Shown here in pieces: positions 7,391 through 30,759 of a stretch of DNA of 64,000 nucleotides. This DNA comes from Gemmiger sp. An120 (GTDB taxonomy: Bacteria > Bacillota > Clostridia > Oscillospirales > Ruminococcaceae). The notes under the pieces are model-generated. The model did no database searches. It had not been told where the DNA came from and saw only the letters and a list, made by a program, of their open reading frames with translations. Location of the stretch: the NCBI RefSeq assembly GCF_002160955.1, contig NZ_NFLN01000010.1, positions 1-64,000 of the forward strand, given 5' to 3'. How positions within the stretch are numbered: the stretch's first letter is position 1; every line of letters starts with the position of its first letter. Made by a program: the position numbers and the translations under genes.

Positions 7391-7398
7391 CGTTGGGA

Positions 7399-7956: not shown

Positions 7957-7985
7957 ATTATAGCCTACGCACATACTTCTGTCAA
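7957..7985 (-). promoter_or_regulatory. Consensus promoter for greA
   Basis: On the minus strand, perfect -35 TTGACA (7980-7985) and perfect -10 TATAAT (7957-7962) are 17 bases apart, about 65 bases upstream of the start. Confidence 0.85.
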
Positions 7986-8077
7986 CCAAAGTGGGTATTT
8001 TTGGACAGATAAATAAAAAACGACTTCTTTTTTTGGCAGACGCTTAGGATCTGCCGGGGGAATTTTGTCGTGCGTAC

Positions 8078-8118
8078 GGCAAAACAGGCGGAAGGGGCCC
8101 TTCTTCCACTGTTTTGCC
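8078..8118. repeat. Long inverted repeat between fusA-like gene and greA
   Basis: GGCAAAACAG (8078-8087) pairs perfectly with CTGTTTTGCC (8109-8118), and the inner GGAAG/CTTC(T)TCC arms extend the stem. It lacks a T tail and lies beyond the terminator of the preceding gene, so its role is not evident. The rest of 7990-8138 holds no recognised feature. Confidence 0.6.
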
Positions 8119-8138
8119 TTTCGCAGGCAGAACGGCAA

Positions 8139-8169
8139 AAAGCCCCGGGCAGCGCCTGCCCGGGGCTTT
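8139..8169 (-). terminator. Terminator after the EF-G-like gene
   Basis: A 14-bp perfect stem (8139-8152 with 8156-8169), rich in GC, with AAA/TTT ends and a CGC loop, 36 bases after the stop. Confidence 0.8.
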
Positions 8170-8204
8170 GCTGTCGATTGGATTGTATGCGCGGGGTATC
8201 CGGA

Positions 8205-10283
8205 TTATTCGTCGTCGGCGGGGCCGTTGCCCAGTTTCTTGGCCTCCTCGATGACCTTTCCTTCCAGCATGGAGGGCAGCGGCTCATAGCGGGTGAACTC
8301 CAGGGTGAACCAGCCGCGGCCCTGGGTCAGCTGCCGCATGAAGGTGGTGAAGTCCTGCATTTCGGCCATGGGCACCTCGGCCTCCACGACCTGCAGGCCG
8401 TCCTCGTCCGGGTGCATGCCCAGCACACGGCCGCGGCGCTTGGTCACGTCGCCCATGATGTCGCCGGTGTTGTCGCCGGGCACGTGGGCTTTCAGGGTGC
8501 CCACCGGCTCCAGCAGGATGGGGCCTGCCTGGGGCAGAGCCGCCTTATAGGCCAGCTTGGCCGCCATGATGAAGGCCATTTCGCTGGAGTCTACCGGGTG
8601 ATAGCTGCCGTCCAGCAGGGTGGCTTTCAGGCCCACCACCGGGTAACCGGCCAGCACGCCATGGGCGGACGCCTGATGCAGGCCCTTTTCCACGGCGGGG
8701 AAGTAGTTCTTGGGCACGCTGCCGCCGAACACCTTCTCTTCAAAGACCAACTCTTCGCTGTCGCAGGGCTCGAACTCGATCCACACGTCACCGAACTGGC
8801 CATGACCTCCGGTCTGCTTCTTGTGGCGGCCCTGGGCCTTGCACTTCTTGCGGATGGACTCACGATAGGCCACACGCGGCGTTTCCAGGGTGATCTCCAC
8901 GCCGAACTTGGCTTTCAGCTTGGCCACCACCACGTCCAGGTGCTGTTCGCCCAGGCCGCTCAGCAGCTGCTGGCCGGTCTCGCTGTCCACACGGTAGCGG
9001 ACGGTGGGATCTTCCTCGATCAGGCGGGCCAGAGCCGCGCCGATCTTGCCCTCATCCCCTTTCTTGGCCACCTTGACCGCCATGGACAGGGTGGGCACCG
9101 GGAACGCCGGGGCGGGCAGCGCCGCCACGCGGGCGGGATCGCACAGGGTATCACCGGTCTGGGCGGCGGGCAGCTTGGTGATCGCGCCCATATCGCCGGC
9201 GGGGATCATTTCGGCATCGGTCTGCTTTTTGCCGCGCACGGTGAGCAGCTTGCCCAGACGCTCGGTCTCGCCGGTACGGGCGTTGACCAGGGTGCTGGAT
9301 GCGGTCAGCTTGCCGCTGAGCACACGCACATAGCTCAGCTTGCCCACAAAGGGATCGGCTACCGTTTTATATACGTATACGGCGGTGGGATCGGCCTCAT
9401 CGCACTTGAACTCCACCTCTTCGCCGTCGGCGTTGACGCCGGTACGGCCGCCCGCGCGCTCGGCGCTGGGCAGCAGACGGACCATGTTGAGCAGCAGCAT
9501 ATCCAGCGCCTGCAGGTTTACAGGGCTGCCGCAGAACACCGGGGTGATGATGCCGTTCTTAACGCCCAGGCGCATGCCTTCCACGATTTCCTCGGTGGTA
9601 AAGGGCTCGCCCTCAAAGAACTTCTCCATCAGCGCGTCGTCGGTTTCGGCCACGGCTTCGCTCATGGCTTCCACCAGGCCTTCCAGGCGGTGGCCCATGT
9701 TGGGCAGTTCGATCTGGATCTGCTTGCCGCCCTCATACTTGAAGGCCTTCTGGCTGAACAGGTTTACATAGGCAACCGTGCCGTCGTCCAGGCGTACCGG
9801 CACCACGCAGGGGCAGATGGACGGACCGAAACGGGTTTTCAGATCCTCCAGAATCTTATAGAAGTTGGCATTCTCCAGATCCATCTTGGAGATGAAGATC
9901 ATGCGGCTCTTGCCCTGCTTTTCGGCCATCTTGTAGGCCTTTTCCGCGCCTACCGACACGCCGCTGCGGCCGGACACGCAGATCAGAACGCTTTCCACCG
10001 CGGGCAGGCCCTCGTACATGCCCACCTCAAAATCAAACAGGCCGGGCACATCGATCAGGTTCAGCTTGATGTCCTCGTACTGCACGGGCGCCACTGCGGC
10101 CGACAGCGAGGCGTGGCGCTTGGCCTCCTCAGGGTCGAAGTCGCAGACGGTGTTGCCGTCCTCCACACGACCCATGCGCTCCAGCGCACCGGTGGTGTAG
10201 AGCAGAGATTCCACCAGGGTGGTCTTGCCGCAGCCAGCATGGCCCGCGACGAGGATGTTGCAGATTTTGTTCGCTTGGTTCAT
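8205..10283 (-). CDS. Elongation factor G-like GTPase (EF-G2 / FusA2 type)
   Basis: A 692-residue translational GTPase with EF-G domain layout. The G1 loop is GHAGCGKT (residues 14-21), followed by GRVEDGNTVCDFDPEE, typical of the EF-G-like branch rather than canonical EF-G. The G3 motif is DVPGL (78-82), not DTPGH, so the His that triggers GTP hydrolysis in EF-G is replaced by Leu. Switch I lacks the RGITI block, and G4 reads SKMD (132-135) instead of NKMD. Domains IV and V look intact (GGHGQFGDVWIEFEP; KRRGRVLGM near the end). It is therefore probably an accessory factor and not the housekeeping translocase; its exact role is unknown. No other ribosomal gene is adjacent. Confidence 0.88.
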   Translation of the reverse strand: MNQANKICNILVAGHAGCGKTTLVESLLYTTGALERMGRVEDGNTVCDFDPEEAKRHASLSAAVAPVQYEDIKLNLIDVPGLFDFEVGMYEGLPAVESVLICVSGRSGVSVGAEKAYKMAEKQGKSRMIFISKMDLENANFYKILEDLKTRFGPSICPCVVPVRLDDGTVAYVNLFSQKAFKYEGGKQIQIELPNMGHRLEGLVEAMSEAVAETDDALMEKFFEGEPFTTEEIVEGMRLGVKNGIITPVFCGSPVNLQALDMLLLNMVRLLPSAERAGGRTGVNADGEEVEFKCDEADPTAVYVYKTVADPFVGKLSYVRVLSGKLTASSTLVNARTGETERLGKLLTVRGKKQTDAEMIPAGDMGAITKLPAAQTGDTLCDPARVAALPAPAFPVPTLSMAVKVAKKGDEGKIGAALARLIEEDPTVRYRVDSETGQQLLSGLGEQHLDVVVAKLKAKFGVEITLETPRVAYRESIRKKCKAQGRHKKQTGGHGQFGDVWIEFEPCDSEELVFEEKVFGGSVPKNYFPAVEKGLHQASAHGVLAGYPVVGLKATLLDGSYHPVDSSEMAFIMAAKLAYKAALPQAGPILLEPVGTLKAHVPGDNTGDIMGDVTKRRGRVLGMHPDEDGLQVVEAEVPMAEMQDFTTFMRQLTQGRGWFTLEFTRYEPLPSMLEGKVIEEAKKLGNGPADDE

Positions 10284-10486
10284 GTCGTTACCTCTCCCCG
10301 CTGCCGCCTGAGTTTGCCCCGACCGGAACGCGGCAGCGCTTATGCAATAATTTTACCATAATACTTTTCATATTCAAATACAAAACTGGTAACTATGGAC
10401 GAAAACCCATCCAAAATTTCCCGTATGGCTTTGTACATTGTGCCGAAAGCAGACAAAAAAACAACAAAGTTTTCGTCGATTCAGGA

Positions 10487-10515
10487 TTGTAGAGTGCAGC
10501 AAAAGGTGGTACAAT
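10487..10515 (+). promoter_or_regulatory. Promoter for the YerC-like gene
   Basis: TTGTAG (10487-10492) and TACAAT (10510-10515) are exactly 17 bases apart, 53 bases before the start codon. Confidence 0.7.
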
Positions 10516-10567
10516 ATATAAGAGAAAATGCGCGGCCGTGTGTGCCGCGCCAAAAAGGAGAAAGGCT

Positions 10568-10864
10568 ATGCCAAAAAAAATCGCCGCTGAGCGCAACATG
10601 GAATTTTACCGGGCGATCCTGCTGCTGAAAGACGAGGACGAGTGCCGCCGCTTTTTTGACGACATCTGCAGCGCCGCGGAACTGAGCTCCATGGAGCAGC
10701 GCTACCAGGTAGCCGCCCTGCTTACCGAGGGCAAGGTGTACACCGACATTCTGGAACGCACCGGCGCTTCCAGCGCCACCATCAGCCGTGTGAACCGCAT
10801 GCTGCAGGGGGGCACCGGCGCCGTATCGGAAATTTTAGAGCGCAGTAAAACTTCGACTCGCTAA
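10568..10864 (+). CDS. YerC/YecD family TrpR-related protein
   Basis: A 98-residue all-helical protein of the YerC/YecD subfamily of the TrpR superfamily. It contains SSMEQRYQVAALLTEGK at residues about 39-55 and the helix-turn-helix recognition part GASSATISRVNRML near residues 66-79. The family is thought to bind DNA as a dimer; no ligand or target is established. ATG 10568 is chosen because AAGGAG is 8 bases upstream; the in-frame start at 10538 lies before that site. It is a single-gene unit with its own promoter and a strong terminator shared with the convergent permease. Confidence 0.88.
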   Translation: MPKKIAAERNMEFYRAILLLKDEDECRRFFDDICSAAELSSMEQRYQVAALLTEGKVYTDILERTGASSATISRVNRMLQGGTGAVSEILERSKTSTR

Positions 10865-10883
10865 ATTCAGAAAGCATACTGTC

Positions 10884-10927
10884 AATTAAAAGCGCGTGCC
10901 CTGTACAGAGGGCACGCGCTTTTAATT
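10884..10927. terminator. Bidirectional terminator
   Basis: A long perfect stem (AATTAAAAGCGCGTGCCCT and its complement) with A-rich and T-rich flanks separates the YerC-like gene from the convergent permease gene. Confidence 0.9.
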
Positions 10928-10941
10928 TGTTGCTTTTGTCG

Positions 10942-12060
10942 TTACGCCAGGCCCATGGCCCAGGCCATGGCCAGCAGCACCACCAGGCCCGCCAGGTTGA
11001 CAGCGGCAAACCAGCCCAGGAACCGGCCCATCCGGGCGTTGGGGCTGCGGGCGTACAGTTTCAGAGAGATCAGGCTGGCCAGCGAGGCCACCGGGGTACC
11101 CAGACCGCCCAGATCGGTGCCCAGCAGCAGGCCTGCGCCGTCATTGGTGAAACCGGACAGCAGCACCGCAGCGGGCACGTTGCTGATCAGCTGGCTGGCC
11201 GCGGCGGCGGTGAACAGGGTGCTGCGGGCCAGCATGGCCTCCAGCAGGCCGCGCACCGCGGGAATGGCCCCCAGATTGCCCGAGAAGATAAAGAAGCAGA
11301 CAAAGGTGGCCAGCAGGCTGTAGTCCACCGTGCGCAGGGTGCTGCGGGAGAGCAGCAGCAGGGCTGCCAGGGTTACCACGAACACCACCGGCACCGGCAG
11401 AACATGCAGCACCGACAGCAGGCAGAGCACAAACAGCGTGCCGAACAATGCCAGGCTGCGGGCCGCAGGGGCCGGGGCGGGGCTGTCCATCCGCACCTGT
11501 ACCGACTGGTTGGGCAGCAGCAGGCAGGGCAGCAGAACGCCCACCAGGCTTACCGCCGCAAAGGGGCCTACCAGCGCCAGGAACTCGCCAAAAGAAAACC
11601 CGTACCGGCTGTACAGGTACAGATTCTGCGGGTTGCCCATGGGCAGCGCCATGCTGCCCAGGTTGGCCGCCGCGGTCTGCAGCACCACCACCAGCGGGGC
11701 CTGTTCGGTCCGGCCGCAAAGCCCCAGCAGCAGCACCGCAAAGGGCACAAAGGTAAGCAGCGCCACGTCGTTGGTGATGAGCATGGAACTGAAGAAAGGC
11801 AGCAGCACCAGCACCCCGCAGAGCAGCCGGAAGCTTTTGCGGCCTGCCAGCAGGCGGCGGCCCATCCAGTCAAACAGGCCGCTGGCCTGCAGCCCGGCCA
11901 CCACCGCCATCAGGCAGAACATCTGCATAAGCACGTTCCAGTCGATATACCCCAGCCAGGCTGCGGTGGGCGGCACCCAGAACGCGCTTACCGCCGCGCA
12001 CACAAAGGCGATGCAGAGCACCGCCTCCTTTTTCATCCATCCCCACACCTTTGCCGCCAT
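10942..12060 (-). CDS. Ion-transporter superfamily (ArsB/NhaD, SLC13-like) permease
   Basis: A 372-residue polytopic membrane protein with about ten hydrophobic segments. It carries two related hairpin motifs of the family: TNDVALLTFVPF near residue 90 with NLGSMALPMGNPQN near residue 125, and SQLISNVPAAVLLSGFTND near residue 280 with GTDLGGLGTPVASLASL near residue 310. These Asn-Pro containing re-entrant loops are typical of CitM/ArsB/NhaD proteins, which move anions or exchange ions across the cytoplasmic membrane. The substrate cannot be read from sequence. ATG 12060 is chosen because GAGGAG lies upstream and the hydrophobic segment begins soon after; in-frame upstream sequence is not protein-like. 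It is slightly shorter than the 400-430 usual for the family. Confidence 0.8.
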   Translation of the reverse strand: MAAKVWGWMKKEAVLCIAFVCAAVSAFWVPPTAAWLGYIDWNVLMQMFCLMAVVAGLQASGLFDWMGRRLLAGRKSFRLLCGVLVLLPFFSSMLITNDVALLTFVPFAVLLLGLCGRTEQAPLVVVLQTAAANLGSMALPMGNPQNLYLYSRYGFSFGEFLALVGPFAAVSLVGVLLPCLLLPNQSVQVRMDSPAPAPAARSLALFGTLFVLCLLSVLHVLPVPVVFVVTLAALLLLSRSTLRTVDYSLLATFVCFFIFSGNLGAIPAVRGLLEAMLARSTLFTAAAASQLISNVPAAVLLSGFTNDGAGLLLGTDLGGLGTPVASLASLISLKLYARSPNARMGRFLGWFAAVNLAGLVVLLAMAWAMGLA

Positions 12061-12088
12061 CTGCCGCACACTCCTCTTTTTTCCGCAC

Positions 12089-12124
12089 AAAACCCGCCGG
12101 TGGTCCTGCCGGCGGGCGTTTTTT
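12089..12124 (-). terminator. Terminator after the XRE regulator
   Basis: CCCGCCGG (12093-12100) pairs with CCGGCGGG (12109-12116), followed on the minus strand by TTTT. It separates the regulator from the permease. Confidence 0.7.
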
Positions 12125-12215
12125 CTACAGCCGGTTTTCCGGCGTTTGTTAGCATAGCACATTTGTCCGGGAAAAGAAAGGTTTTTGCGCAAACCAGCGG
12201 CAAAAAATCGCATTT

Positions 12216-12602
12216 TCAGAGGATTTTGGCATACCGCAGAAGCAGCCCCAGCACCAGCGCGAGAGCCGATATGCCGATGATTGCCCAGCCAAACAGGCAC
12301 AGCCACCGCCAAGCAAGGCGCAGCAGTTCCTCGGCCTTTTCGCTCCTTTGCAGCAGGGCATCCACCTTTTGAATGGTCTGGCTATCGTTGCGCACCGCCT
12401 GCAGATCCACATCCCGCACCAGTTCATCCAGCGAAAGCTGAAAGTAATCCCCCAGCAGCACCAGCTTCTGAAAATCCGGGTAGGACTGGCCCGCCTCCCA
12501 TTTGGATACCGTCTGCCGGGATACCCCCAGCTCCAGCCCCAGTTCCTCCTGGGACAATCCTTTCTGCTTGCGCAGCCGAACGAGTTTTTCACAAAACAGC
12601 AT
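12216..12602 (-). CDS. XRE-family regulator with C-terminal membrane segment
   Basis: A 128-residue protein. Residues about 5-60 form a Cro/C1-type helix-turn-helix domain: LVRLRKQKGLSQEELGLELG, then VSRQTVSKWEAGQSYPD, then LVLLGDYFQLSLDEL. A charged linker follows, and the C terminus (about 97-122) is one strongly hydrophobic segment ending in LLLRYAKIL, so the repressor is probably tethered to the membrane. The layout is common among small Firmicutes regulators paired with membrane proteins; here the neighbour is the permease downstream, separated by a terminator. The ligand and target are unknown. GGAGAGAG precedes the start. Confidence 0.88.
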   Translation of the reverse strand: MLFCEKLVRLRKQKGLSQEELGLELGVSRQTVSKWEAGQSYPDFQKLVLLGDYFQLSLDELVRDVDLQAVRNDSQTIQKVDALLQRSEKAEELLRLAWRWLCLFGWAIIGISALALVLGLLLRYAKIL

Positions 12603-12648
12603 GGTTCTCTCTCCTTTTCCGCCGCCGCAGCGGCTCTGTCTGGTTCAC

Positions 12649-12677
12649 AGAATACCCCGGCGTCGTTTTTCCGGCAA
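12649..12677 (-). promoter_or_regulatory. Promoter for the XRE regulator
   Basis: On the minus strand, TTGCCG (12672-12677) and TATTCT (12649-12654) are 17 bases apart, about 50 bases before the start. Confidence 0.45.
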
Positions 12678-12746
12678 GCAACAAGGGTTGGCAATCTGTC
12701 AACCGGGCTGTTCATCCGGCCCAAAATCCGCTTTGGGCGGCAAACG

Positions 12747-12788
12747 ACCCGCTTCTCCCCTGCCGGAAACGGCGGAAACAAGCGGGTC
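12747..12788 (-). terminator. Hairpin after pflA, probable terminator
   Basis: CGACCCGCTT (12747-12756 region) pairs with AAGCGGGTCG ending near 12788, with a second inner helix CTGCCG/CGGCGG. The T tract is poor, so termination is less certain. Confidence 0.45.
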
Positions 12789-12796
12789 GTGGTTTG

Positions 12797-13525
12797 TCAG
12801 CCGGCCAGATTTCCCAGCGCGGCGCGCAGATTGGTCAGATGCTCCGCCGACGCGGCAGGCACATCCGCCAGCGGGAACGGCAGACCCAGATTCTCGTACT
12901 TGTGCAGGCACAGTTTATGGAACGGCAGCAGTTCCACCTTTTGCAGGGTGGGCAGGGTGCGGGCCAGAGCGGCGAAGCGGGCGGCGTGTTCCGGCCCGTC
13001 GGTCAGGCCCGGCACCACCACATGCCGCAGCCAGACGGGCACCCCCATCTCCCCGGCCAGGGCCAGCACCTCCATCGTGTGGGACAGGCTGCCGCCGGTA
13101 TAGCGGCGGTAGTCCTCCTCGGTGGAGAATTTCAGATCCGCCAGCAGCAGGTCGGTGTGTTCCAGTGCCGCCCGGGCAGCGGCCAGAGGGGCGGCGCAGG
13201 AGGTATCCAGCGCGGTGTGGAAGCCCTCCGTCTGCAGAGCCGCCAGCAGCGCAGCGGCAAATTCCGGCTGGGCCAGGGGTTCGCCCCCGGTGAGGGTGAC
13301 TCCGCCGCTTTCCTTTATATAGGGCGCACAGCGGCGCACCTTTTGCAGCACCTGTTCCACCGTAGCCGGCTGCCCGCCGGAAAACGCCCAGGTATCTGGG
13401 TTATGGCAGTAGGCACAGCGCAGCGGGCAGCCCTGGAAAAACACCACATACCGCAGGCCGGGGCCGTCCACCGCCCCCATCGACTGGAAGGAGTGGACCC
13501 GGCCGGTCATCGCCCCGGCGCTCAC
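12797..13525 (-). CDS. pflA: Pyruvate formate-lyase activating enzyme, radical SAM
   Basis: A 242-residue radical-SAM enzyme that installs the glycyl radical on PflB. It has the cluster motif CPLRCAYC (CxxxCxxC) near residues 33-40, preceded by the [16 protein letters not shown] segment typical of PflA, and the SAM-binding GGEPL strand ([16 protein letters not shown]) near residues 74-89. Length is normal (about 235-250). The start overlaps the pflB stop: GTG at 13525 overlaps TGA as GTGA, giving translational coupling. An ATG at 13510 is an alternative start. Its substrate is the neighbouring pflB product. Confidence 0.95.
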
Positions 13526-15750
13526 AGCGCCTCGTGGAAGGTGCGCTGGATGACCTCCCGCTGCTGTTCCCGGCTGAGTTTGTGGAAGTCCACCGCGTAG
13601 CCGGATACCCGGATGGTCAGGTTGGGGTACTTGTCCGGGTCGTTGTAGGCGTCCACCAGCTTCTGGCGGTCCATTACGTTTACATTCAGATGGTGGGCCC
13701 CCTGGGCAAAGTAGCCGTTCAGCAGCTGCACCAGGTTGGCGTACCGGTCCGCGTCGGTGCGGCCCAGGGCGGCGGGCAGGATTGAGAAGGTGTTGGAGAT
13801 GCCGTCCTTGCAGTAGTCGTACCGGATCTTGGCTACCGAGTTCAGACTGGCCAGCGCGCCGCTCTTTTCCCGGCCGTGCATGGGGTTGGCGCCGGGAGCA
13901 AAGGGTTCGCCCGCCTTGCGGCCGTCCGGGGTGGAACCGGTCTTTTTGCCGTAGACCACGTTGGAGGTGATGGTGAGCACCGACAGGGTGGGTTCGGCGT
14001 TGCGGTAGAGAGGATGCTTTTTCAGTTCCTCAAAGAACAGCCGGGCCTGCTCGGCGGCCAGGGAGTCCACCCGGTCGTCGTCGTTGCCATAGGCGGGGTA
14101 CTCCCCTTCCACCTCAAAGTCGGTGATCAGGCCGGTTTCCTCGTCCCGGATGCAGCGCACCTTCGCGTACTTGATGGCCGACAGGGAGTCCGCCAGCACG
14201 CTCAGCCCTGCGATGCCGAAGGCCATATACCGGTGCACGTCGGTGTCGTGCAGGGCCATCTGCAGCTTCTCGTAGGCGTATTTGTCGTGCATGTAGTGGA
14301 TCACGTTCATGGTGTTGGCGTAAACGCCGGCCAGCCACTCCCGGTAGAAGTCCAGGCGGCGGCAGACACCCTCGTAATCCAGGTACTCGCCCTGCCAGGG
14401 GGTGGTGGCGGGGCCCACCTGCTGGTTCTTCTTTTCATCCTTGCCGCCGTTCAGGGCCATGAGCAGCATCTTGGGCAGGTTGGCCCGGGCGCCGAAGAAC
14501 TGCATATCCTTGCCCAGCCGCATGGCGGACACGCAGCAGGCAATGGCGTAATCGTCCCCGTAGATGGGACGCATCAGATCGTCGTTCTCGTACTGGATGG
14601 CGTCGGTCTGGCAGGACACCCGGGCGCAGAACCGCTTGAAGCCCTCCGGCAGAGCGGCGGCCCAGAGCACCGTCAGGTTGGGTTCCGGCGCGCTGCCCAG
14701 GTTATACAGGGTGTTCAGTACCCGGAAGGAGTTGCGGGTGACCAGGGTGCGGCCATCCTGGCCCATACCGCCCACCGCCTCGGTGATCCACATGGGATCG
14801 CCGCCGAACAGCTCGTTGTACTCGGGGGTGCGCAGGTGGCGGGCCATCCGCAGCTTGAGCACGAACTGGTCCATCAGTTCCTGGGCGCCGGTCTCGTCCA
14901 GGATACCGGCCGCCATGTCCCGCTGGAAGTAGATGTCCAGGAAGGTGCTGACACGGCCCAGGCTCATGGCCGCGCCGTTCTGCTCCTTGATGGCGCCCAG
15001 ATAGCCGAAGTAGGTCCACTGCACCGCCTGCCGGGCGTTTTCGGCAGGGGCGGAGATGTCAAAGCCGTAGAGCCCGGCCATCTTTTTCAGCTTGTCCAGG
15101 AAGTCGATATGGCGCCAGACCTCCTCCCGCAGGCGGATGGTGTCCTCGTCCATATCCCGATGGCCCAGGGCGGCGTAGTCGGCCTTTTTGGCCTCGATCA
15201 GCATGTCCACCCCGTACAGGGCCACCCGGCGGTAGTCGCCGATGATTCGGCCCCGGCCGTAGGCATCGGGCAGGCCGGTGATCAGGCCGCAGTGCCGGGC
15301 GGCACGGGCCTCTTCATTATACACGCGGAACACCCCGTCGTTGTGGGTGGTGCGGTAGCGGAATTCTTCTTCGATCTTGTCGGACAGCTTGTAGCCATAG
15401 GCTTCGCAGGCCTGCCGGGCCATCCGGATACCGCCGAAGGGGTTCACCCCCCGGCACAGCGGCGCGCCGGTCTGCAGGCCCACGATCAGCTCATTCTCCT
15501 TGTCCAGGTAGCCGGGGCCGTAGCTGAGCAGGCTGGACACGTTCTCGGTATCCACGTCCAGCACGCCGCCCTTGGCCCGCTCTTCTTTCAGCAGGGCGTT
15601 GAACTTCTCCATCAGCCCTTTGGTGCGGGCGGTGGGCCCGGCCAGGAAACTGTCGTCCCCCTCATAGGGGGTATAGTTGCGCTGGATAAAATCCCGCACG
15701 TTGATCTCGTTCTGCCAGACGCCGGGCACAAAACCGTTCCACTGCTGCAT
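13522..15750 (-). CDS. pflB: Formate C-acetyltransferase (pyruvate formate-lyase)
   Basis: A 742-residue glycyl radical enzyme converting pyruvate and CoA to acetyl-CoA and formate, the anaerobic source of formate for one-carbon metabolism. The catalytic cysteine pair is in ACCVSAM near residues 403-404, and the radical glycine in RVSGYAV near residue 717. Length fits PflB (about 740-760). ATG 15750 is chosen because GGGAGA lies upstream and the protein then begins like other PflBs; the open frame up to 16284 is non-coding leader. The 215-base leader contains a ZTP riboswitch and terminator. pflA follows with overlap. Confidence 0.97.
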
Positions 15751-15810
15751 AGTTGTTCTCCCTTCCCCTGCCTGCGGCAGGCGCTCCCACATCGCTGTGC
15801 CGCCCTGGAC

Positions 15811-15849
15811 AAAACAAAATGGGCAGCACCGCAAACGCGATGCTGCCCA
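15811..15849 (-). terminator. Riboswitch-controlled terminator in the pflB leader
   Basis: GGGCAGCA (15821-15828) pairs with TGCTGCCC (15841-15848). On the minus strand the stem is followed by ATTTTGTTTT. Its 5' arm overlaps the conserved 3' end of the ZTP aptamer (CTGGGCA), so ligand binding and terminator formation compete. Confidence 0.85.
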
Positions 15850-15921
15850 GACGGTCGGCAATGTATGGGACGGCCTGTTCCCCTGTGGTAGTTCCACTGA
15901 TCCGTCAGTCACAGGCGTCTG
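15842..15921 (-). promoter_or_regulatory. ZTP/ZMP riboswitch (pfl RNA motif)
   Basis: Read on the minus strand, the leader contains the hallmarks of the pfl motif in order: GTGACTGACGG, then GTGGAACTACCAC followed by GGGGA, then a variable linker, and the conserved CCGTCTGGGCA. The class binds ZTP or ZMP, which accumulate when 10-formyl-tetrahydrofolate is short, and turns on one-carbon genes. Location upstream of pflB, plus an overlapping terminator, fits a transcriptional ON switch: with ZTP bound the terminator cannot form, and PflB makes formate. The expected CCGCCTGGG has one change (T for C). Confidence 0.9.
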
Positions 15922-15972
15922 CCCCCTATATATGGTGGCGGGCGGAACGCCGCGCCGGTGGGGGCACTTCAT

Positions 15973-16002
15973 ATGGTACGCCATTTTGCGGGTGCTTGTC
16001 AA
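15973..16002 (-). promoter_or_regulatory. Promoter for pflB
   Basis: On the minus strand, -35 TTGACA (15997-16002) and -10 TACCAT (15973-15978) are 18 bases apart, about 50 bases upstream of the riboswitch. Confidence 0.6.
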
Positions 16003-16082
16003 GCGGCAGACTGCACGAACCGGGCCACCCGCAAACGGAAAACGACCGGCGGGGTACACAAAAGGAAATCTTTTCCGGAAAA

Positions 16083-16116
16083 CCCAAACGCCCCTGCCGA
16101 AACAGGGGCGCTTGGG
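16083..16116 (-). terminator. Terminator after the DUF5107/TPR gene
   Basis: A 14-bp stem with one mismatch (16083-16096 with 16103-16116) followed on the minus strand by GGTTTTCC. Confidence 0.65.
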
Positions 16117-16151
16117 TGTCAGTTGAGAGAAAAAGAGGATAGCAAATTGTT

Positions 16152-19100
16152 TCAGTTGCACAGATGGCTGTGCAGGATAGCCCCCTGATGGGCACAGTCG
16201 ATGCGCAGGGTCTCGGCAAAGCTGGCGGCGGCGCGGGCGGTATCGCCCAGGCCGTAGCTGCCCAGACCGATCAGGTAGTGGCAATGGCCCTGATTGCGGC
16301 GGGTCAGGTCTTCCTCAAACAGCTGCAGTTCCGGCAGGGACACGGCAAAGTAGTCGATCTTGACGGTGTCGAACAGGTGCTTCTCGCCGTAGTCCACCAG
16401 CTTGTGGAACCGGGCCAGGGCGGCTTCCTCCCGGCCCAGGGCGCGGTGTGCCAGGCCCTGGTACAGGATCATGTCGGCGGGCTGGTCGTTATAGTACATC
16501 ATGCCCGCAGGCTCCTCGGTGCCCACGCTGGCGCGCTCAAAGTAGACCACGGCCTGCTCCTCGTTGCCCAGCATACGCTCGGCACAGCCCAGCGCGTAGT
16601 AGATGTCGTTGTCCTTGGCGCCTTCCAGCTTGCCCTCGCCCAGGTTCTCGGGGAATACCAGCGCTTTGAGCAGCAGGTCCCGGGCGCCGGCGGCGTCACC
16701 GGCGTTCAGCTTGGCCAGGCCCATCTGGGTCAGGGCGGTGGCGTACTGCTTGGTCACCTTGCCTTCACCGCCCTCCCAGGGATGGAAATGACGGCCCATG
16801 ATGATGGCATAGGCCTCTTCATAGCGGCCCAGCAGGTTGAGCAGGGTTACATATTCCACGCACAGATCGTCCCGCTTGACCCTGGTCTCGGGGTACTTGT
16901 CCAGATTGGCCAGACGCTCGGCGGGGGTCACGCCGGTCTTTTTGTACAGCTGATCCAGTTCCAGCAGGATACGGGCGTCGGTGGTATCCAGGGCAAAGGC
17001 CTTTTCCATGCCTTCGCGGGCACGGACGGGATCCTTGGAGTTGTTGAACCAGGTCAGGGACAGGTTGCGCCACACGGTGGGGAACGCCGGATCCAGTTCG
17101 GCGGATTTCTCCCACAGCTGACGGGAAGTCTCATACTGCTTCTTGTCGTAGTACAGGCAGCCCAGGTAGTAGGGGGCGCGGGGATCGGTGGGATCGGCTT
17201 CCATAGCCTGCTGCAACACACACAGATCCTCCAGCTTGTTGGGGAAGCAGTACAGCGGGCTGCGCCCCTTGGCCTCGGCAAAGGCCTTGCGGCTGGCGTC
17301 CTCGTCGCCCAGGCGGGCCAGATAAGCGCCCTCGTAGTACTTGAGCATGGGGCTGCCGGCGGTGCACAGGCGCAGCATGGCCACCGCGGTATCCCACTGA
17401 CCAGCCTCGGCCAGGTCGATGGCGCACTCGATAAAGCTGCTGGCACGATTGCCCATCAGGTGCAGCAGTTCCTCGTGGCCGGTGCCCTCCCACTGGCCCA
17501 GCAGGTAGCGGGACACATAGCAGAAGGGATCCAGTTCCAGATCGCTGCGCAGCTGATCCAGGGCCTCCACGCGGCGGCCCAGCTTATCCAGCAGGATGGC
17601 GCGCAGGCTGCGGGCTTTCAGGTTGTGGGCGTTGCGCACCAGGCTGCGCTCCACATGGGCCAGGGCCTCCCGCCACTCGCCGCGGCGGGTGCTGATGGCA
17701 GCCAGGTAGTAGAAGCTCATCTCCTGCTGGGCGGCGGTCCAGGTGGCCTTGTAGAAGGCGTCGAAGGCCTCGTCGTTACGGCCCTGGTAGAACAGCGCCA
17801 GGCCCAGATCGTAGTAGGCTTCGCTGTCGTAGGGGTTGGGGTTCTTCCAGGTCAGGCGGGCGATGGCGGCACGGAAGTGCTTCTCCGCCTGGGCGAACAG
17901 GCCCCGGCGCAGCAGCAGCAGGCCGTAGCCGGTGTTCAGGCGGATGTCGCCCGGGTCACGCTTCAGACCTTCCAGATAGTAGGGATCGGGATCGTAGGTG
18001 GCGTGGCGGTACTGTTCCAGATGCTGGGCAGTCAGGTACAGTTCCTCGCAGGTGGCGATCTCCTCCGGCTCCTTGGCGGGCTGGGCGGGATCAGGCACCT
18101 TGTCCACATGGGGCGCGGCGGCGGTGTAGTCCAGCAGCAGACGGCCGTCGGCATCGTAGACCGACAGGGTCAGCTCATGGGCGGCCAGGTCGCCGGTCTC
18201 GGCGGTGGTGCAGAGCACCTGGGTGGGCGACAGGTCGTTGGTGCGGTCCAGCCAGGTCTTGCCGCCGCCGGTCAGGACGGTGCGTACCCCGGCACGGGGG
18301 CCGGTGGCGTAGACCACCACATGGGACACCCCGTCCGCAACTTCCAGGTTCAGCACGATCTCGGTGCTGGCGTTCTTGACGCTGCCCGCCTTTTTGTAGG
18401 GCATGAAATACTGGGTGAAGGTCTTTTCCTCAAAGGGCTTGAGCCAGGTGAAGTCGGGCTGGTTGTCGGTGAACATACCGGTCATCAGCTCGATGTAGGG
18501 GCCGTTCTCGTCGGTCAGGTTACGGTCCCAGGCCTTGCCGAAGTCGCCGCAGCCCCAGGTCCACTGCTTCTTGCCGGGGGACACATGGTGGTCGGCAATG
18601 TGCAGGATGCCGGCCTCCACCTGGTAGTCATAGCCGCCCACGAAGTTGTAGTCAGAGTGGTAGGCCATGTAGGAGGTGGGTACCGGGATGTTCTTGTAGC
18701 GGCTGATGTCCACGCCCGCGCCGTAGTCGTGCTTGTAGTACACGCCGGTGGCGATGGGGAAACGGGAGACATCCCGCTTGCCGTGGTCCATAACCGCGGT
18801 CACGTCGGGCGGGAAGATGGACTGGGTGTAGTCGTTGACCGGTACCGCGGGGTTGGCCCACCACAGGAAGGTCTGGGGGGTGTTGGTGCGGTTGTACAGC
18901 TGGCCCTTGATCTCGATGTAGGCTTTATCCGGGTAGAGGGTGAAGCTGGCCATACCCTTGGTGCCGTACATCTGGTCCACCTCGCTCACCTGCACGGTGG
19001 CGCTGCCGTCCGGATTGTTCTTCAGCACAAAATCGGTGGGGGCATAGGTGGTAGGACGATGATGCTGGGGCCAGTTGAACTCGATACCGCCGCTGATCCA

Positions 19101-26657: not shown

Positions 26658-26741
26658 ACATCCGCCGCCGTTGCTGGCTTGCCGAAAACGGAAAATTCTT
26701 ATACTTTTTTGCTATTTTAGGAACACAGACGCCTCAGATTA

Positions 26742-26750
26742 TGGTATACT
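26742..26750 (+). promoter_or_regulatory. Extended -10 element for the second AraC gene
   Basis: TGGTATACT lies about 20 bases upstream of the GGAGG and 22 bases before the start codon. A -35 is not evident. Confidence 0.5.
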
Positions 26751-26772
26751 ATATATAAAAAAGGAGGCGAAT

Positions 26773-27666
26773 GTGTTGAAAGATGACGCCACAACGCTGC
26801 TGTTCCACAGTTCCGGCCTGGGCCAGGCAGGCAGCGCTTCGGTAAAGGCTTTACCCGCAAACTACACCTTTGCCCCTCATCTGCACGCGGAAGCGGAGAT
26901 CAACTGCTGCCTGTCCGGGCAGGCGGTGATCACGCCGGACGGGGCGCCCGTAACGCTGGAAACCGGGCAGTTTCTGCTGCTGTATCCGGAAGTTCCTCAC
27001 GGGGCTGCCAGCCAGGAGGGCTGTGTACTGCTGCAGATGCATTTTCAGCCCGGGCATTTCCAGCTGCCGCTGAGTGACCGTCTGCGGGAGCAGCAGCTGT
27101 ATTTTCCGCTGGATCTGATGCTGGGGCGGCGGCGGTACTTTCTGGGGGAAACCACCCCCCAGCTGCGGGACACGGTGGATTACCTGCAGCAGGAACTGCA
27201 CAACCGGCAGCCCAACTACCAGCAGATGTGCGAGCTGTACCTGCTGCAGCTGGTGATGCTGCTGAGCCGCCAGATCGGCCGGGAGGACGGGCCGGGCGGC
27301 ACCCTGCACAACCGGCATCTGGTGGTGGCGGCGGAATACATTGCCGCCCACTATTCGGAAAAACTTACGGTGGAGCAGGTGGCCCAGGAGTGCGGCATCT
27401 CCGCCCGGCAGCTGAGCGGCCTGTTCCGCCGGGAACTGGGGGTAAGCCCCGGGGCCTACATCACCGGTATCCGGATCAGCCGGGCCATCCAGCGCGGAAG
27501 CGCCGAGGGTGATCGGATGCCCATGGACCGGCTGGCACTGGAATGCGGCTTCAGCAGCCAGCAGCAGTTCTGCCGGGTGTTCAAGGCCTATGTGGGCATG
27601 AGCCCGGGCCGGTATTTTTCTCACCGGCAGGGCGGCGATCCCCTCTATGATACGGCACCCTTTTGA
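26773..27666 (+). CDS. AraC-family transcriptional regulator
   Basis: A regulator of about 297 residues. It has an N-terminal cupin domain (HAEAEINCCLSGQAVIT, then LETGQFLLLYPEVPHG) and a C-terminal double helix-turn-helix: LTVEQVAQECGISARQLSGLF and ALECGFSSQQQFCRVFKAYVG. No ATG fits the ribosome-binding site; GGAGG is followed after 5 bases by GTG (26773) and after 8 by TTG (26776), and either could be the start. It diverges from the URO-D gene with 165 bases between them, so it probably controls that gene. A strong terminator follows at 27676-27711. Confidence 0.92.
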   Translation: MLKDDATTLLFHSSGLGQAGSASVKALPANYTFAPHLHAEAEINCCLSGQAVITPDGAPVTLETGQFLLLYPEVPHGAASQEGCVLLQMHFQPGHFQLPLSDRLREQQLYFPLDLMLGRRRYFLGETTPQLRDTVDYLQQELHNRQPNYQQMCELYLLQLVMLLSRQIGREDGPGGTLHNRHLVVAAEYIAAHYSEKLTVEQVAQECGISARQLSGLFRRELGVSPGAYITGIRISRAIQRGSAEGDRMPMDRLALECGFSSQQQFCRVFKAYVGMSPGRYFSHRQGGDPLYDTAPF

Positions 27667-27675: not shown

Positions 27676-27711
27676 AAAAAGCCCGCGGGCCAGATGGCCC
27701 GCGGGCTTTTT
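27676..27711. terminator. Bidirectional terminator between AraC and GGGtGRT genes
   Basis: A 16-bp perfect stem (27676-27691 with 27696-27711) around AGAT with A and T runs at the ends. Confidence 0.92.
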
Positions 27712-27725: not shown

Positions 27726-28724
27726 TTACTGATTGACCTGAGAAGCAGCCACAGCGCAAGCCACGGTCATACCGACCATGGGGTTGTTGCCGGCGCCGAT
27801 CAGACCCATCATCTCCACGTGAGCAGGCACGCTGGAGGAGCCGGCGAACTGAGCGTCGCCGTGCATGCGGCCCATGCTGTCGGTCAGGCCGTAGCTGGCG
27901 GGACCAGCGGCCACGTTGTCCGGATGCAGGGTACGGCCGGTGCCGCCGCCGGAAGCCACGGAGAAGTACTTCTTGCCGTTCTCGATGGCCCACTTCTTGT
28001 AGGTGCCGGCAACCAGGTGCTGGAACCGGGTGGGGTTGGTGGAGTTACCGGTGATGGAAACCTCCACGGCCTCCTTCTTCATGATGGCCACGCCTTCCAG
28101 CACGTCGTTGGCACCGTAGCACTTCACGGCGGCGCGCTCGCCGTCGGAGAAGGCCTTCTCACGGACAACCTTCAGCTCGCCGGTCTTGAAGTCGTAGTCG
28201 GTCTCCACGTAGGTGAAGCCGTTGATACGGCTGATGATGTAGGCAGCGTCCTTGCCCAGGCCGTTCAGAATGACGCGCAGCGGGGTCTTGCGGGCCTTGT
28301 TGGCGGTGCGGGCGATACCGATGGCGCCCTCGGCGGCGGCGAAGGACTCGTGGCCGGCCAGGAAGGCAAAGCACTTGGTGTCGTCGCTCAGCAGCATGGC
28401 GCCCAGGTTACCGTGGCCCAGGCCCACCTTGCGCTGCTCGGCCACAGAGCCGGGGATGGTGAAGGCCTCCAGGCCCTCGCCGATGGCAGCGGCGCACTCG
28501 GCGGCGCTGGTCAGGCCGCGCTTCACGGCGATGGCGGTGCCCAGGGTGTAGGCCCACACAGCGTTCTCAAAGCAGATGGGCTGCACGCCCTTGACAATAG
28601 CCTCGCAGTCGATGCCCTTCTCGAGGAGCATATCGCGGCAGGCGTCCAGGGATTCCAGGCCGTTGGCCTTCAGGCATGCCTCGATTTTGGGCATGCGGCG
28701 ATCCATAGATTCAAAAGTAGCCAT
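27726..28724 (-). CDS. GGGtGRT family protein
   Basis: A 332-residue protein carrying the sequence after which the family is named: SVASGGGTGRTLHPDNVAAGPA near residues 255-275, split here by position. Other conserved stretches are GLGHGNLGAMLLSDDTKCFAFLAG near 100-123 and the C-terminal GLIGAGNNPMVGMTVACAVAAS. It is soluble with no signal peptide. The family is confined mostly to anaerobic Firmicutes and related bacteria and lacks a known function. It follows the NifU-like gene by 18 bases in the same operon, which suggests a link with iron-sulfur clusters or a metal-dependent process. Confidence 0.88.
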   Translation of the reverse strand: MATFESMDRRMPKIEACLKANGLESLDACRDMLLEKGIDCEAIVKGVQPICFENAVWAYTLGTAIAVKRGLTSAAECAAAIGEGLEAFTIPGSVAEQRKVGLGHGNLGAMLLSDDTKCFAFLAGHESFAAAEGAIGIARTANKARKTPLRVILNGLGKDAAYIISRINGFTYVETDYDFKTGELKVVREKAFSDGERAAVKCYGANDVLEGVAIMKKEAVEVSITGNSTNPTRFQHLVAGTYKKWAIENGKKYFSVASGGGTGRTLHPDNVAAGPASYGLTDSMGRMHGDAQFAGSSSVPAHVEMMGLIGAGNNPMVGMTVACAVAASQVNQ

Positions 28725-28742
28725 TGTTGTACTCCTCCTCTC

Positions 28743-29435
28743 TTATTCTTCGCGCGGGTCGATGTACTTGGCAGCGCCATCGAACCGGCCGTAGGTGCCG
28801 ATGTTCTTCTCGAACGCGGTCTTGGGATCCTCGCCGTGGCGGATCGCCTCCAGCATCTTGCCCAGACGCACGAACTGATAGCCGATGACCTCGTTGTTCT
28901 CGTCCAGAGCGGTCTTGAGGATGTAGCCCTCGGTCAGCTCCAGGTAACGAACACCCTTGGCCTTGGTGGAGAAGATGGTACCGGTCATGCTGCGCAGACC
29001 CTTGCCCAGGTCTTCCAGGCCGGCGCCGATGGGCAGGCCGTCCTCGCTGAAAGCGGTCTGGCTGCGGCCGTAGACGATCTGCAGGAACAGCTCACGCATA
29101 GCCACGTTGATGGCGTCGCAAACCAGGTCGGTGTTCAGGGCTTCCAGAATGGTCTTGCCGGGCAGGATCTCGCCGGCCATGGCGGCAGAATGGGTCATGC
29201 CGGAGCAGCCGATGGTCTCCACCAGGGCTTCTTCGATGACGCCGTTCTTCACGTTCAGGGTCAGCTTGCAGGTACCCTGCTGGGGGGCGCACCAGCCCAC
29301 ACCGTGGGTCAGACCGGAAATGTCCTTGATCTCATAGGCTTTTACCCAGTTGCCCTCCTCCGGAATGGGGGCGGGACCGTGGTGCGGGCCTTTGGTCAGA
29401 GGACACATACGCTCTACTTCATGAGAATAGGTCAT
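28743..29435 (-). CDS. NifU/IscU-like iron-sulfur scaffold protein
   Basis: A 230-residue protein with an IscU-type N-terminal domain. Cys49, Cys56 and Cys77 lie in GWCAPQQGTCKL and TIGCSGMTHSA, roughly where NifU proteins hold the cluster ligands, and a fourth Cys is in DLVCDAIN. The C-terminal third, with GYILKTALDENNEVIGYQF, is not part of the standard scaffold. No cysteine desulfurase gene is nearby, so its sulfur source is not shown. ATG 29435 is chosen because AAGGAGAG lies upstream; the longer frame to 29480 includes the promoter. It is cotranscribed with the GGGtGRT gene from a TTGAAA-17-TATAAT promoter. Confidence 0.85.
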   Translation of the reverse strand: MTYSHEVERMCPLTKGPHHGPAPIPEEGNWVKAYEIKDISGLTHGVGWCAPQQGTCKLTLNVKNGVIEEALVETIGCSGMTHSAAMAGEILPGKTILEALNTDLVCDAINVAMRELFLQIVYGRSQTAFSEDGLPIGAGLEDLGKGLRSMTGTIFSTKAKGVRYLELTEGYILKTALDENNEVIGYQFVRLGKMLEAIRHGEDPKTAFEKNIGTYGRFDGAAKYIDPREE

Positions 29436-29483
29436 AATAGTACTCTCCTTTTCTGCTGAAAAATGATTGGCACTGCTCATACT

Positions 29484-29512
29484 ATTATACGGTGGACAAG
29501 CCTTTTTTTCAA
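29484..29512 (-). promoter_or_regulatory. Promoter for the NifU-like/GGGtGRT operon
   Basis: On the minus strand, TTGAAA (29507-29512), 17 bases, TATAAT (29484-29489), about 50 bases before the start. Confidence 0.8.
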
Positions 29513-29544: not shown

Positions 29545-30759
29545 TCAATTTTTTCTCAAGGATTTGTCAAAGCCGCCTTTCCCGCCGGTGGGACGCAATG
29601 CCAGCAGGCAGACAAAGCCCGCAGCGGCCGCCGCCACCGCCACCCAGTGCCGGGCCAGCTGCCAATGCAGCGCCCGGGCCGCCAGCGGAAAAGCCAGCCC
29701 GCCCGCGCTCATGCCCAGGGCCAGGAATCCGTAGTTGACCCCGGCATGGGGCATGCCGAACAGGTCGGTGCCCAGCGCGGGCAGCAGCGCCGCCTGGCCG
29801 GAGTAGCAGAAGGTCAGTGCCGTGTACCCGGCCACGAACCAGCCGCCCCGGGCAAAGGCAAAGGCCACGGACAGGCCCGCCAAGGCAGCAAACAGGCCCA
29901 GATAGGTGCGGCGGCGGCCCAGCCGATCGCTGAGCAGGGGCATGAGCAGCCGGCCGGCGGCGCTGCCCACGCTGCCCACCGCCACCGGCAGCGCCGCCCA
30001 GGCATCGGGCAGGCCCCGCTGGCGGCCCAGTTCCAGCAGGATGGGGCTGAACAGCAGCACGGCTGGCGAAGCCATGGCCACCACCGTGACGCAGAGCCAG
30101 TACTGTCGGGTACGCAGCATCCGGGCGGGGGTGTAGTCCTGCCCGTCGGCGGGCGATGCCGCGGGTTGTTTTGTGGTTTGCGGCGGGTTTTTGAGCAGAG
30201 CCGCCCCGCCGCCGCAGACCACCGCCAGTACCCCGGCCAGCACCCACAGGCAGGCCCGGATGCCCCACCGGCCGTTCAGGCCATTCACCAACAGGGAGAG
30301 CACCGCGCCGCTGGCCCCGGCCGCGCCGCCGATCACGCCGGTGGCCAGGCCCTTTTTATCGGCGTACCATTTCTGGGCGCAGCTCATGACCGCCGGGTAC
30401 AGGAACGCGCACCCCATCCCCACCGGCAGGCTGAACGCCAGCGCGAACACCGCCGCGCTGCCCGCCGGAACTGCCGCCCCGGCGGCAAAACCTCCCGCCA
30501 GCAGCGCCGCCCCGGCCAGCCCGGCGGGGCGTGGGCCGAACCGGTCCTGCAGAAAACCGCCCAGCACACAGCCCAGCCCGAACGCCCCGATGATCAGGCT
30601 GAACACCCACTCGGCCCCGGCTTCGTTCAGCCGGTATTCGGCGGCCACCGGTTCATGGAACACGCCCCAGGCCGCCGGGATGCCGGTAAGGGCCTGGATG
30701 GCCGCCCCGGCCGCTAAGATCAAAACGCCCCGCTTGGACTTTTTTGACAATGCACTCAC
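29545..30759 (-). CDS. MFS transporter, OFA (oxalate/formate antiporter-like) family
   Basis: A 404-residue protein with twelve hydrophobic segments in two halves. It has the N-terminal OFA-like block GIPAAWGVFHEPVAAEY and the loop 2-3 motif GGFLQDRFGPR (residues about 65-78), and its repeat SDRLGRRRTYLG in the second half near residue 275. Members exchange carboxylates such as oxalate and formate, but many have unknown substrates, so none is assigned. The frame starts with GTG at 30759, with GGGAGA 9 bases upstream. The C terminus is Lys-rich. No obvious terminator separates it from the promoter of the NifU-like gene downstream. Confidence 0.85.
   Translation of the reverse strand: MSALSKKSKRGVLILAAGAAIQALTGIPAAWGVFHEPVAAEYRLNEAGAEWVFSLIIGAFGLGCVLGGFLQDRFGPRPAGLAGAALLAGGFAAGAAVPAGSAAVFALAFSLPVGMGCAFLYPAVMSCAQKWYADKKGLATGVIGGAAGASGAVLSLLVNGLNGRWGIRACLWVLAGVLAVVCGGGAALLKNPPQTTKQPAASPADGQDYTPARMLRTRQYWLCVTVVAMASPAVLLFSPILLELGRQRGLPDAWAALPVAVGSVGSAAGRLLMPLLSDRLGRRRTYLGLFAALAGLSVAFAFARGGWFVAGYTALTFCYSGQAALLPALGTDLFGMPHAGVNYGFLALGMSAGGLAFPLAARALHWQLARHWVAVAAAAAGFVCLLALRPTGGKGGFDKSLRKN

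What the first reader, a model, noticed from the sequence alone, without database searches (positions are those of the whole stretch)
27726..29512. Two-gene GGGtGRT/NifU-like operon of unknown function
A well-formed promoter drives an IscU/NifU-like scaffold with an extra C-terminal region and a GGGtGRT protein whose role is not established. No desulfurase is nearby, so it may be a separate cluster-delivery or metal-handling system.
Basis: partly seen in the sequence, partly recalled or inferred. Interest (0 to 1): 0.55.

Follow-up and report, generated by a model that had tools for sequence, protein, structure and literature searches.

The report
Iron-linked NifU-like and GGGtGRT gene pair
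Two genes that are almost always found together make a relative of an iron-sulfur carrier protein and a partner protein of unknown job; published data from two other bacteria show that both rise when iron is plentiful, so the pair probably handles iron and sulfur, but no test of what it does was found.

Summary
On the minus strand, a sigma-A-type promoter (11 of 12 consensus bases) leads into a 230-aa IscU-fold protein (N) and a 332-aa GGGtGRT protein (G, PF14057), closed by a hairpin terminator. The pair behaves as one unit. N lies directly upstream of G in 109 of 110 loci; the exception is a contig edge. An N homologue occurs in all 29 G-bearing genomes of a 398-genome phylum sample and all 66 of a 148-genome class sample (the samples overlap), and in one genome without G.

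N is not a standard scaffold: it scores below all five NifU/IscU/SufU models it touches, lacks the LPPVK-HC motif, has rearranged cysteines and adds a C-terminal domain. The host has an IscS-like/IscU pair on another contig. G has no universally conserved cysteine, but invariant charged residues follow its core strands, as in active sites. Published tables list both genes 11-13-fold down in iron-starved Bacteroides thetaiotaomicron and both proteins up in iron-rich Clostridium pasteurianum.

Best reading: an iron-induced Fe-S carrier or buffer with a dedicated Rossmann-type partner. The biochemistry is inferred. Side finding: in some genomes G's 3' end is an integration site for mobile elements.

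The parts
29507..29512 (-). promoter -35 box TTGAAA
   Evidence: same element upstream of N in L035 and L036 (by eye)
29484..29489 (-). promoter -10 box TATAAT, 17-nt spacer
29444..29450 (-). ribosome-binding site AAGGAGA of the NifU-like gene
   Evidence: sequence
28743..29435 (-). NifU-like gene (N), 230 aa: IscU-fold residues ~39-125, then a C-terminal domain ~126-230
29118..29291 (-). span of the conserved cysteines of N: C49 (29289-29291), C56 (29268-29270), C77 (29205-29207), C106 (29118-29120)
   Evidence: C49, C77, C106 in 41 of 41 (A3) and 30 of 30 (phylum loci); C56 in 41 of 41 and 29 of 30; positions computed from the gene start
28732..28741 (-). ribosome-binding site (AGGAGG) of the GGGtGRT gene, in the gap after the NifU-like stop codon
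   Evidence: sequence
27726..28724 (-). GGGtGRT gene (G), 332 aa: helical N-terminal part 1-112, Rossmann-like core ~115-258, conserved loop 258-298
27930..27950 (-). GGGTGRT motif, residues 259-265
   Evidence: sequence
27676..27711 (.). bidirectional-type intrinsic terminator (11-bp GC stem, 4-nt loop, A and T flanks)
   Evidence: by eye, fold; not listed by the scan

Best explanation
An autonomous two-protein module, made when iron is plentiful, that carries or buffers iron and sulfide outside the cell's general assembly line. N is a diverged U-type (IscU-fold) protein that holds an Fe-S species on cysteines C49/C56/C77/C106, with sulfur supplied in trans by a general desulfurase. Lacking the Asp and LPPVK-HC features of assembly scaffolds, it is more likely a stable carrier or reservoir than a quick-release scaffold. 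G is a Rossmann-type partner with an invariant H/E/K/D/R/N pocket; it would load, unload or consume what N carries, perhaps with a nucleotide or metal. SHOWN HERE: the unit, co-occurrence, predicted fold of N, residue pattern. SHOWN BY OTHERS in other bacteria: iron-replete expression. INFERRED: cluster binding, N-G contact, the storage/buffer role, the pocket's ligand, iron response in this organism.
For: Adjacency in 30 of 30 and 79 of 80 loci. Co-occurrence: N profile at E <= 1.7e-90 in exactly the 29 of 398 genomes with PF14057, next match E 1.3e-7; class sample 66 of 66; plasmid collection: G in 10 records, N's C-terminal domain in the same 10 of 72,556. N/G distances correlate, r 0.65 over 107 pairs, best of 999 permutations 0.29 (species tree not removed). 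N's IscU fold: 1q48 Z 8.9, 2.0 A over 85 residues. Iron: BT0173-74 -12.8 to -11 in iron depletion, ferritin BT3823 only -2.7 (PMC10434189, passages); C. pasteurianum GGGtGRT 7.1x early and 2.2x late, NifU-related 2.4-3.7x and 1.6-2.9x, higher at Fe+ (PMC5395762, passages; columns read by position). G's charged invariants: 11 of 60 post-strand positions against 11 of 272 elsewhere, p 4e-4. Strong ferritin matches are rarer in pair-bearing genomes: 4 of 29 against 143 of 369; 21 of 66 against 42 of 82.
Against: Falling expression in iron starvation is also what iron-consuming proteins do, so the sign does not separate supplier from client. The ferritin counts were read by hand from tables, with a threshold chosen after the first table, overlapping samples and no correction for relatedness; 21 of 66 pair-bearing class genomes do have ferritin. 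No cluster or metal binding was tested. The model of N is weak (pLDDT 67, pTM 0.49), Foldseek gives no match at E <= 0.001 for it (best 1q48, E 0.0047), and unrelated chains come close in VIA (Z 7.5). G's key loop 260-298 is below pLDDT 50. C118 of G is in 42 of 42 rows of A2 and 27 of 30 phylum loci, so a cysteine role in G is not excluded. Nothing here shows that N and G touch. Orthology of the iron-regulated genes rests on names and locus tags.
Confidence: 0.4

Rival explanations
1. G is a Rossmann-type enzyme of an unknown reaction and N is its dedicated sulfur or cluster donor (or Fe-S subunit). The pair is then an iron-dependent enzyme, not an iron-handling system, and goes down in iron starvation as other Fe-S enzymes do.
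For: Invariant charged residues cluster after core strands as in active sites; very high conservation, 81% mean column identity in A2; SDH/FRD, Rnf and Vor genes fall in the same iron study.
Against: No fold match with E <= 0.001 gives an enzyme class (VIA rows are generic Rossmann); no substrate or pathway gene recurs beside the pair.
Confidence: 0.3
2. One reading: N is a true second Fe-S assembly scaffold and G its helper, delivering clusters to particular targets.
For: IscU fold, C77 aligned with the canonical second cysteine.
Against: Below the five NifU/IscU/SufU models it touches; canonical first Cys and Asp aligned to Q53 and residue 55 (Thr here, mostly Ala); LPPVK-HC missing in 41 of 41 rows; no desulfurase recurs in the neighbourhoods; expression sign opposite to the induction of Isc/Suf in iron starvation (that sign recalled from E. 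coli work, not from a call).
Confidence: 0.17
3. N is a SufU-like zinc-bound sulfurtransferase, or a carrier of another metal, and G uses the persulfide or metal; iron regulation is indirect.
For: SufU has the same fold (SufU rows 6jzv, 6jzw).
Against: SufU-specific model score 17.6 against cut-off 92.5; no Aminotran_5 (desulfurase-type) gene in the window.
Confidence: 0.1

Closest known systems
IscU / NifU N-terminal domain / SufU (PF01592)
   Same: Predicted fold of residues ~39-125; the ETxGCSG segment with C77 matches the canonical second cysteine.
   Different: Below family cut-offs; first Cys/Asp positions and LPPVK-HC not conserved; cysteines C49, C56, C77, C106 instead; added C-terminal domain; fixed partner G.
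GGGtGRT protein family (PF14057)
   Same: G is a full-length member (E 7.8e-187).
   Different: None; the family has no assigned function that I found. Nine held papers name it; I opened passages of five: tables or lists, 'poorly characterised' in one, and one that lists it among high-scoring putative virulence-factor hits of Clostridium innocuum. None of the passages tests a function.
IssA, thioferrate Fe-S storage protein of Pyrococcus furiosus (PMC5524996)
   Same: A Nif-related protein that stores iron and sulfide and can feed cluster assembly (abstract and passages): a functional model for a possible storage role.
   Different: IssA is an IPR003731 (NifB/NifX-type) protein with a tail, sulfur-responsive; the Pfam scan shows no such domain in N or G.
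Bacterial ferritin (PF00210)
   Same: Also lowered in iron-starved B. thetaiotaomicron (BT3823, -2.7).
   Different: No sequence relation; the pair responds more strongly (-11 to -12.8).

Membership tests
GGGtGRT protein, PF14057 | score over the curated cut-off, full length | tested here: met
   620.4 bits against 27; residues 4-328, profile 1-325 of 327
GGGtGRT protein, PF14057 | GGGtGRT motif | tested here: met
   residues 259-265
NifU/IscU/SufU U-type scaffold | over a curated family cut-off | tested here: not met
   PF01592 19.7 against 22; TIGR03419 24.5/187.9, TIGR01999 19.8/192.4, TIGR01994 17.6/92.5, TIGR02000 12.7/273.3
NifU/IscU/SufU U-type scaffold | IscU fold | tested here: met
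   1q48 Z 8.9, rmsd 2.0 over 85 residues; all 19 listed rows with Z >= 7.8 are IscU-type chains, the next is an unrelated chain at 7.5. Model confidence only moderate; no Foldseek match at E <= 0.001
NifU/IscU/SufU U-type scaffold | three cluster cysteines and the Asp at canonical positions | tested here: inconclusive
   C77 aligns with the second cysteine; the first Cys and the Asp fall on Q53 and residue 55 by sequence alignment, but conserved C49 and C56 flank that loop and C106 may stand in for the third; loop alignments are uncertain
IscU (Isc type) | LPPVK-HC motif (LPPVKVHC in the host's own IscU) | tested here: not met
   present in L031 1495-1941, PPVK in 0 of 41 rows of A3
NifU/IscU/SufU U-type scaffold | accepts sulfur from a desulfurase and assembles a cluster | not testable with these tools
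   needs purified protein
Ferritin | PF00210 domain | tested here: not met
   no hit in N or G at E <= 1
IssA | IPR003731 domain plus glycine-rich tail | tested here: not met
   Pfam scan shows only NifU_N for N and only GGGtGRT for G; features of IssA from PMC5524996 passages
SDH_alpha / L-cysteine desulfidase (considered for G) | detectable profile similarity | tested here: not met
   hhalign probability 0.2%, 8 columns; one of the host's three SDH_alpha proteins was tested

The most novel reading that the evidence does not exclude
N and G together form a bacterial iron-sulfide storage or buffering system, common in this clostridial class (66 of 148 sampled genomes) and present in Bacteroidota, Vibrio and Persicobacter, that partly stands in for ferritin: N binds Fe-S on its cysteines, and G, a Rossmann-type protein, organises or mobilises the store. 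I recall no such system built on an IscU fold, but did not search print for one.
Probability: 0.14. Interest if true: 0.85.

Novelty: new variant of a known kind. Interest (0 to 1): 0.5.

Why it matters
[quoted passage not shown] Showing that it comes with one fixed partner of IscU fold, that both respond to iron in two phyla, and that its invariant residues form a pocket-like pattern turns an anonymous abundant protein into a testable question: do many gut anaerobes use an unrecognised iron-sulfur carrier or store?

Tried and rejected
1) G as a relative of L-serine dehydratase / L-cysteine desulfidase (a GxGN-like C-terminus suggested it, from memory): hhalign 0.2% against one of the host's three SDH_alpha proteins. 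Rejected. 2) G by sequence against PDB: no relative (best profile hit E 0.035, a guanylyl cyclase fragment, taken as chance). A weak transketolase hit (E 0.0015, 16.9 bits against 575) was judged chance. 3) Foldseek for G: 0 matches at E <= 0.001; VIA rows top at Z 8.4, are generic Rossmann folds and cover mainly residues 112-320, so only a fold class is claimed, and the helical front is untested. A likeness of SGGGTGRT to the FtsZ/tubulin GGGTGxG loop is recalled only; no FtsZ row was among the 50 listed. 4) A third operon gene: crude ORF calling around 80 loci found no family close to the pair beyond the integrase of 4 loci; the largest cluster (16 loci) is scattered ABC-transporter ATPases, and a SecA-like gene (by eye) lies 3.7-5 kb upstream in 6 loci. 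5) A shared operator upstream of N: none seen by eye in 76 upstream stretches; no motif program was run. 6) Ferritin as an 'instead of' marker: simple presence is useless (372 of 398 genomes at E 0.001), so strong matches were taken at E <= 1e-20, chosen after seeing that table and counted by hand; the class sample used the same threshold fixed beforehand, but the samples share genomes. 7) 'Phage' records with G pieces as evidence for an att site: rejected; three of the six were fetched and look like plain bacterial chromosome (gene names by eye). 8) Pair in Vibrio and Persicobacter: neighbours show no Fe-S theme (by eye). 9) Rows dropped from the distance correlation: L016 (decayed), L083 (no N on the contig), L113 (N cut by the contig end); 107 of 110 used. 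10) The post-strand test uses five core strands that I chose; the two strands 171-178 and 183-191 were left out.

Full report
WHAT IS THERE. Both genes lie on the minus strand. G occupies 27726-28724 (332 aa; PF14057 E 7.8e-187). N occupies 28743-29435 (230 aa). The gap between them holds an AGGAGG site. The promoter TTGAAA-17-TATAAT (29512 to 29484) matches 11 of 12 positions and recurs upstream of N in L035 and L036 (by eye). An 11-bp GC stem with A/T flanks at 27676-27711 closes the unit (71-nt fold -39.3 kcal/mol, z -7.8, 0 of 200 shuffles as good); the consensus scan did not list it. Against L035, differences are mostly synonymous (G 56 synonymous and 22 non-synonymous in 330 codons; N 45 and 15 in 230).

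THE PAIR IS ONE UNIT. In the phylum sample, which includes the window's genome, 29 of 398 genomes carry G, in 30 places; of 14 named control genomes only Bacteroides ihuae does. N precedes G on the same strand in 30 of 30 of those loci, although in L016 both genes are damaged. Of 80 further loci from named genomes, 79 show the same order; the 80th has only 54 bp upstream on its contig, and in one of the 79 (L113) N is cut by the contig end. The two sets may share species. The 80 include records titled Spirochaetes, Elusimicrobiales, Gastranaerophilales, Succinivibrio and Collinsella. Searching the same 398 genomes with an N profile gave matches at E <= 1.7e-90 in exactly the 29 G genomes, again 30 places (29 nearly full length, one damaged in G341); the next match is E 1.3e-7, and such matches cover only the IscU-like core. 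In a class sample 66 of 148 genomes carry G, some as contig-end fragments, and 67 carry N at E <= 1e-20: all 66, plus a partial N (positions 1-169 of 230) in G403, a genome of 220 contigs. Adjacency was not counted in the class sample, and the two samples share genomes. Of 72,556 plasmid-collection records, 10 carry G and the same 10 carry N's C-terminal domain. No third gene recurs close to the pair in the 80 loci apart from an integrase in 4, and neighbour orientation is near random (downstream 43 plus / 33 minus, upstream 39 / 33). N and G distances correlate (r 0.65, 107 pairs, best of 999 permutations 0.29), but shared species history is not removed.

N. Sequence alone gives weak, local matches to NifU/IscU/SufU, all below the cut-offs of the five models touched. 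The AlphaFold2 model (41 sequences, pLDDT 67, pTM 0.49) has an IscU fold at residues 39-125 (1q48 Z 8.9, 2.0 A over 85 residues), though Foldseek's best match is only E 0.0047. A profile comparison with the host's own IscU (hhalign 90.8%) aligns C77 with the canonical second cysteine. In an alignment with an IscU chain (2kqk) the canonical first Cys and Asp positions fall on Q53 and residue 55. The LPPVK-HC motif of the host IscU is absent in 41 of 41 rows. Conserved instead are C49, C77, C106 and H44 (41 of 41 and 30 of 30) and C56 (41 of 41 and 29 of 30); H82 is Gln in 4 of 30. From memory, not from a call: removing the corresponding Asp of IscU stabilises its cluster, so its absence here would suit a carrier or store better than a quick-release scaffold. 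The C-terminal ~100 residues match no Pfam family.

G. No cysteine is invariant across the 14-sequence alignment; C118 comes closest (42 of 42 rows of A2, 27 of 30 phylum loci). The model (pLDDT 82, pTM 0.83) has a helical front and a Rossmann-like core; no PDB match reaches E 0.001 and the best structural rows are generic Rossmann folds. Invariant charged residues concentrate in the 12 residues after each of five core strands that I chose: 11 of 60 positions against 11 of 272 elsewhere, p 4e-4 (H125, E126, E132, K158, D159, R166, E210, R233, H236, R264, D269). That is an active-site or ligand-pocket pattern. The name-giving loop 260-298 is modelled with low confidence.

THE REST OF THE GENOME. 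The host has a PF00266 desulfurase-type gene (IscS-like by eye) directly before a canonical IscU on another contig and one SufBD-type match; no desulfurase-type gene lies in the window. The pair is therefore extra. The host's best ferritin-family match is only E 2.2e-5.

IRON. Two published tables, read as passages, list both genes. In B. thetaiotaomicron, BT0173-BT0174 (GGGtGRT, NifU) fall 11- to 12.8-fold (P printed as 0) in iron depletion, against 2.7-fold for ferritin (PMC10434189). That paper's text mentions the NifU gene under nitrogen metabolism; GGGtGRT occurs in it once, in the table. In C. pasteurianum, F502_05012 (GGGtGRT) is 7.1-fold (early) and 2.2-fold (late) higher with iron, and F502_05017 (NifU-related) 2.4-3.7-fold and 1.6-2.9-fold, columns read by position (PMC5395762). 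I did not compare those genes with the window's by sequence; identity rests on names and neighbouring tags. A chicken-gut study reports high in-vivo expression of GGGtGRT in distant taxa (PMC11204068, passages). In the held library nine papers name GGGtGRT; a search for the B. thetaiotaomicron tags returned the same paper and an unrelated one; two NifU-plus-iron searches returned the two iron papers and a Vibrio cholerae riboflavin-iron paper that I did not open. I opened passages of five of the nine; none of those passages tests a function.

FERRITIN. Strong ferritin matches (E <= 1e-20, counted by hand) occur in 4 of 29 pair-bearing and 143 of 369 other genomes (p 0.008), and in a second, partly overlapping sample in 21 of 66 against 42 of 82 (p 0.02). 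The direction fits a partial substitute for ferritin, but relatedness is not corrected and 21 genomes of the class sample have both.

MECHANISM. Most likely (0.4): an iron-induced Fe-S or Fe/S carrier or buffer, N holding the Fe-S species and G acting on it. The main rival (0.3) is that G is an iron-dependent enzyme with N as its sulfur or cluster donor; iron regulation cannot separate these. A conventional second scaffold (0.17) and a SufU-like zinc sulfurtransferase (0.1) are less likely.

SIDE FINDING. In some genomes the 3' end of G is an integration site. In L157 a tyrosine integrase (Phage_integrase E 8.1e-28) starts 93 bp after G's stop, and a 98-bp copy of G's 3' end (94% identical) lies about 9 kb on; between them sit a type III restriction-modification pair and a WYL protein. 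L158 has the same layout: integrase 73 bp after the stop, a 93-bp copy (97%) about 15 kb on, and a bSEFIR defence gene inside. Related integrases follow G in 4 of 78 named loci with enough sequence; in three of these (L085, L102, L104) no second copy of the 3' end was found within the locus. The window itself has no such insert: a terminator and an AraC-type gene (by eye) follow G.

VERDICT.

Noticed in passing
L157 2093-11174 and L158 (reverse strand) 2261-17199; also L073, L085, L102, L104: The last ~95 bp of the GGGtGRT gene look like an attachment site: a tyrosine integrase follows 73-359 bp after the stop codon, and in L157 and L158 a 93-98-bp near-identical copy of the gene's 3' end lies 9-15 kb on; the inserts carry defence genes (type III restriction-modification; bSEFIR). 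Integrases in 4 of 78 named loci; no second copy seen in L085, L102, L104.
   Followed up: partly
L156 3776-3870, L159 5840-6368, L066 4626-4689, L108 10191-10299 and 12270-12378: Further stray copies of the GGGtGRT 3' end 1.7-5.3 kb downstream of the gene; the integrase search found none in L066 and L108 and did not cover L156 and L159. Perhaps remnants of lost elements.
   Followed up: partly
L016 1060-1640 (genome G341): A decayed pair: N has an early frame break and loses its C-terminal domain, and the first residues of G are gone, in a single-contig genome.
   Followed up: partly
L024 and L030 (genome G207): One genome holds two complete pairs; the second G is only 60% identical to the window's.
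   Followed up: no
L147 5800-5991: Parabacteroides distasonis has a short hypothetical gene (63 aa) between N and G.
   Followed up: no
L160, L161, L162 (MT835590, MT839063, MT836003): Three of six records filed as 'Bacteriophage sp.' that carry GGGtGRT pieces look like plain bacterial chromosome (frr-, pyrH-, dnaX- and gyrB-like genes recognised by eye); the other three were not opened.
   Followed up: partly
window 29545-30759 and 26671-27666: Neighbours are an MFS-type transporter gene on the same strand upstream and a convergent AraC-type regulator (names by eye); a similar transporter ORF is shared by L036 and L037 (likeness by eye).
   Followed up: no
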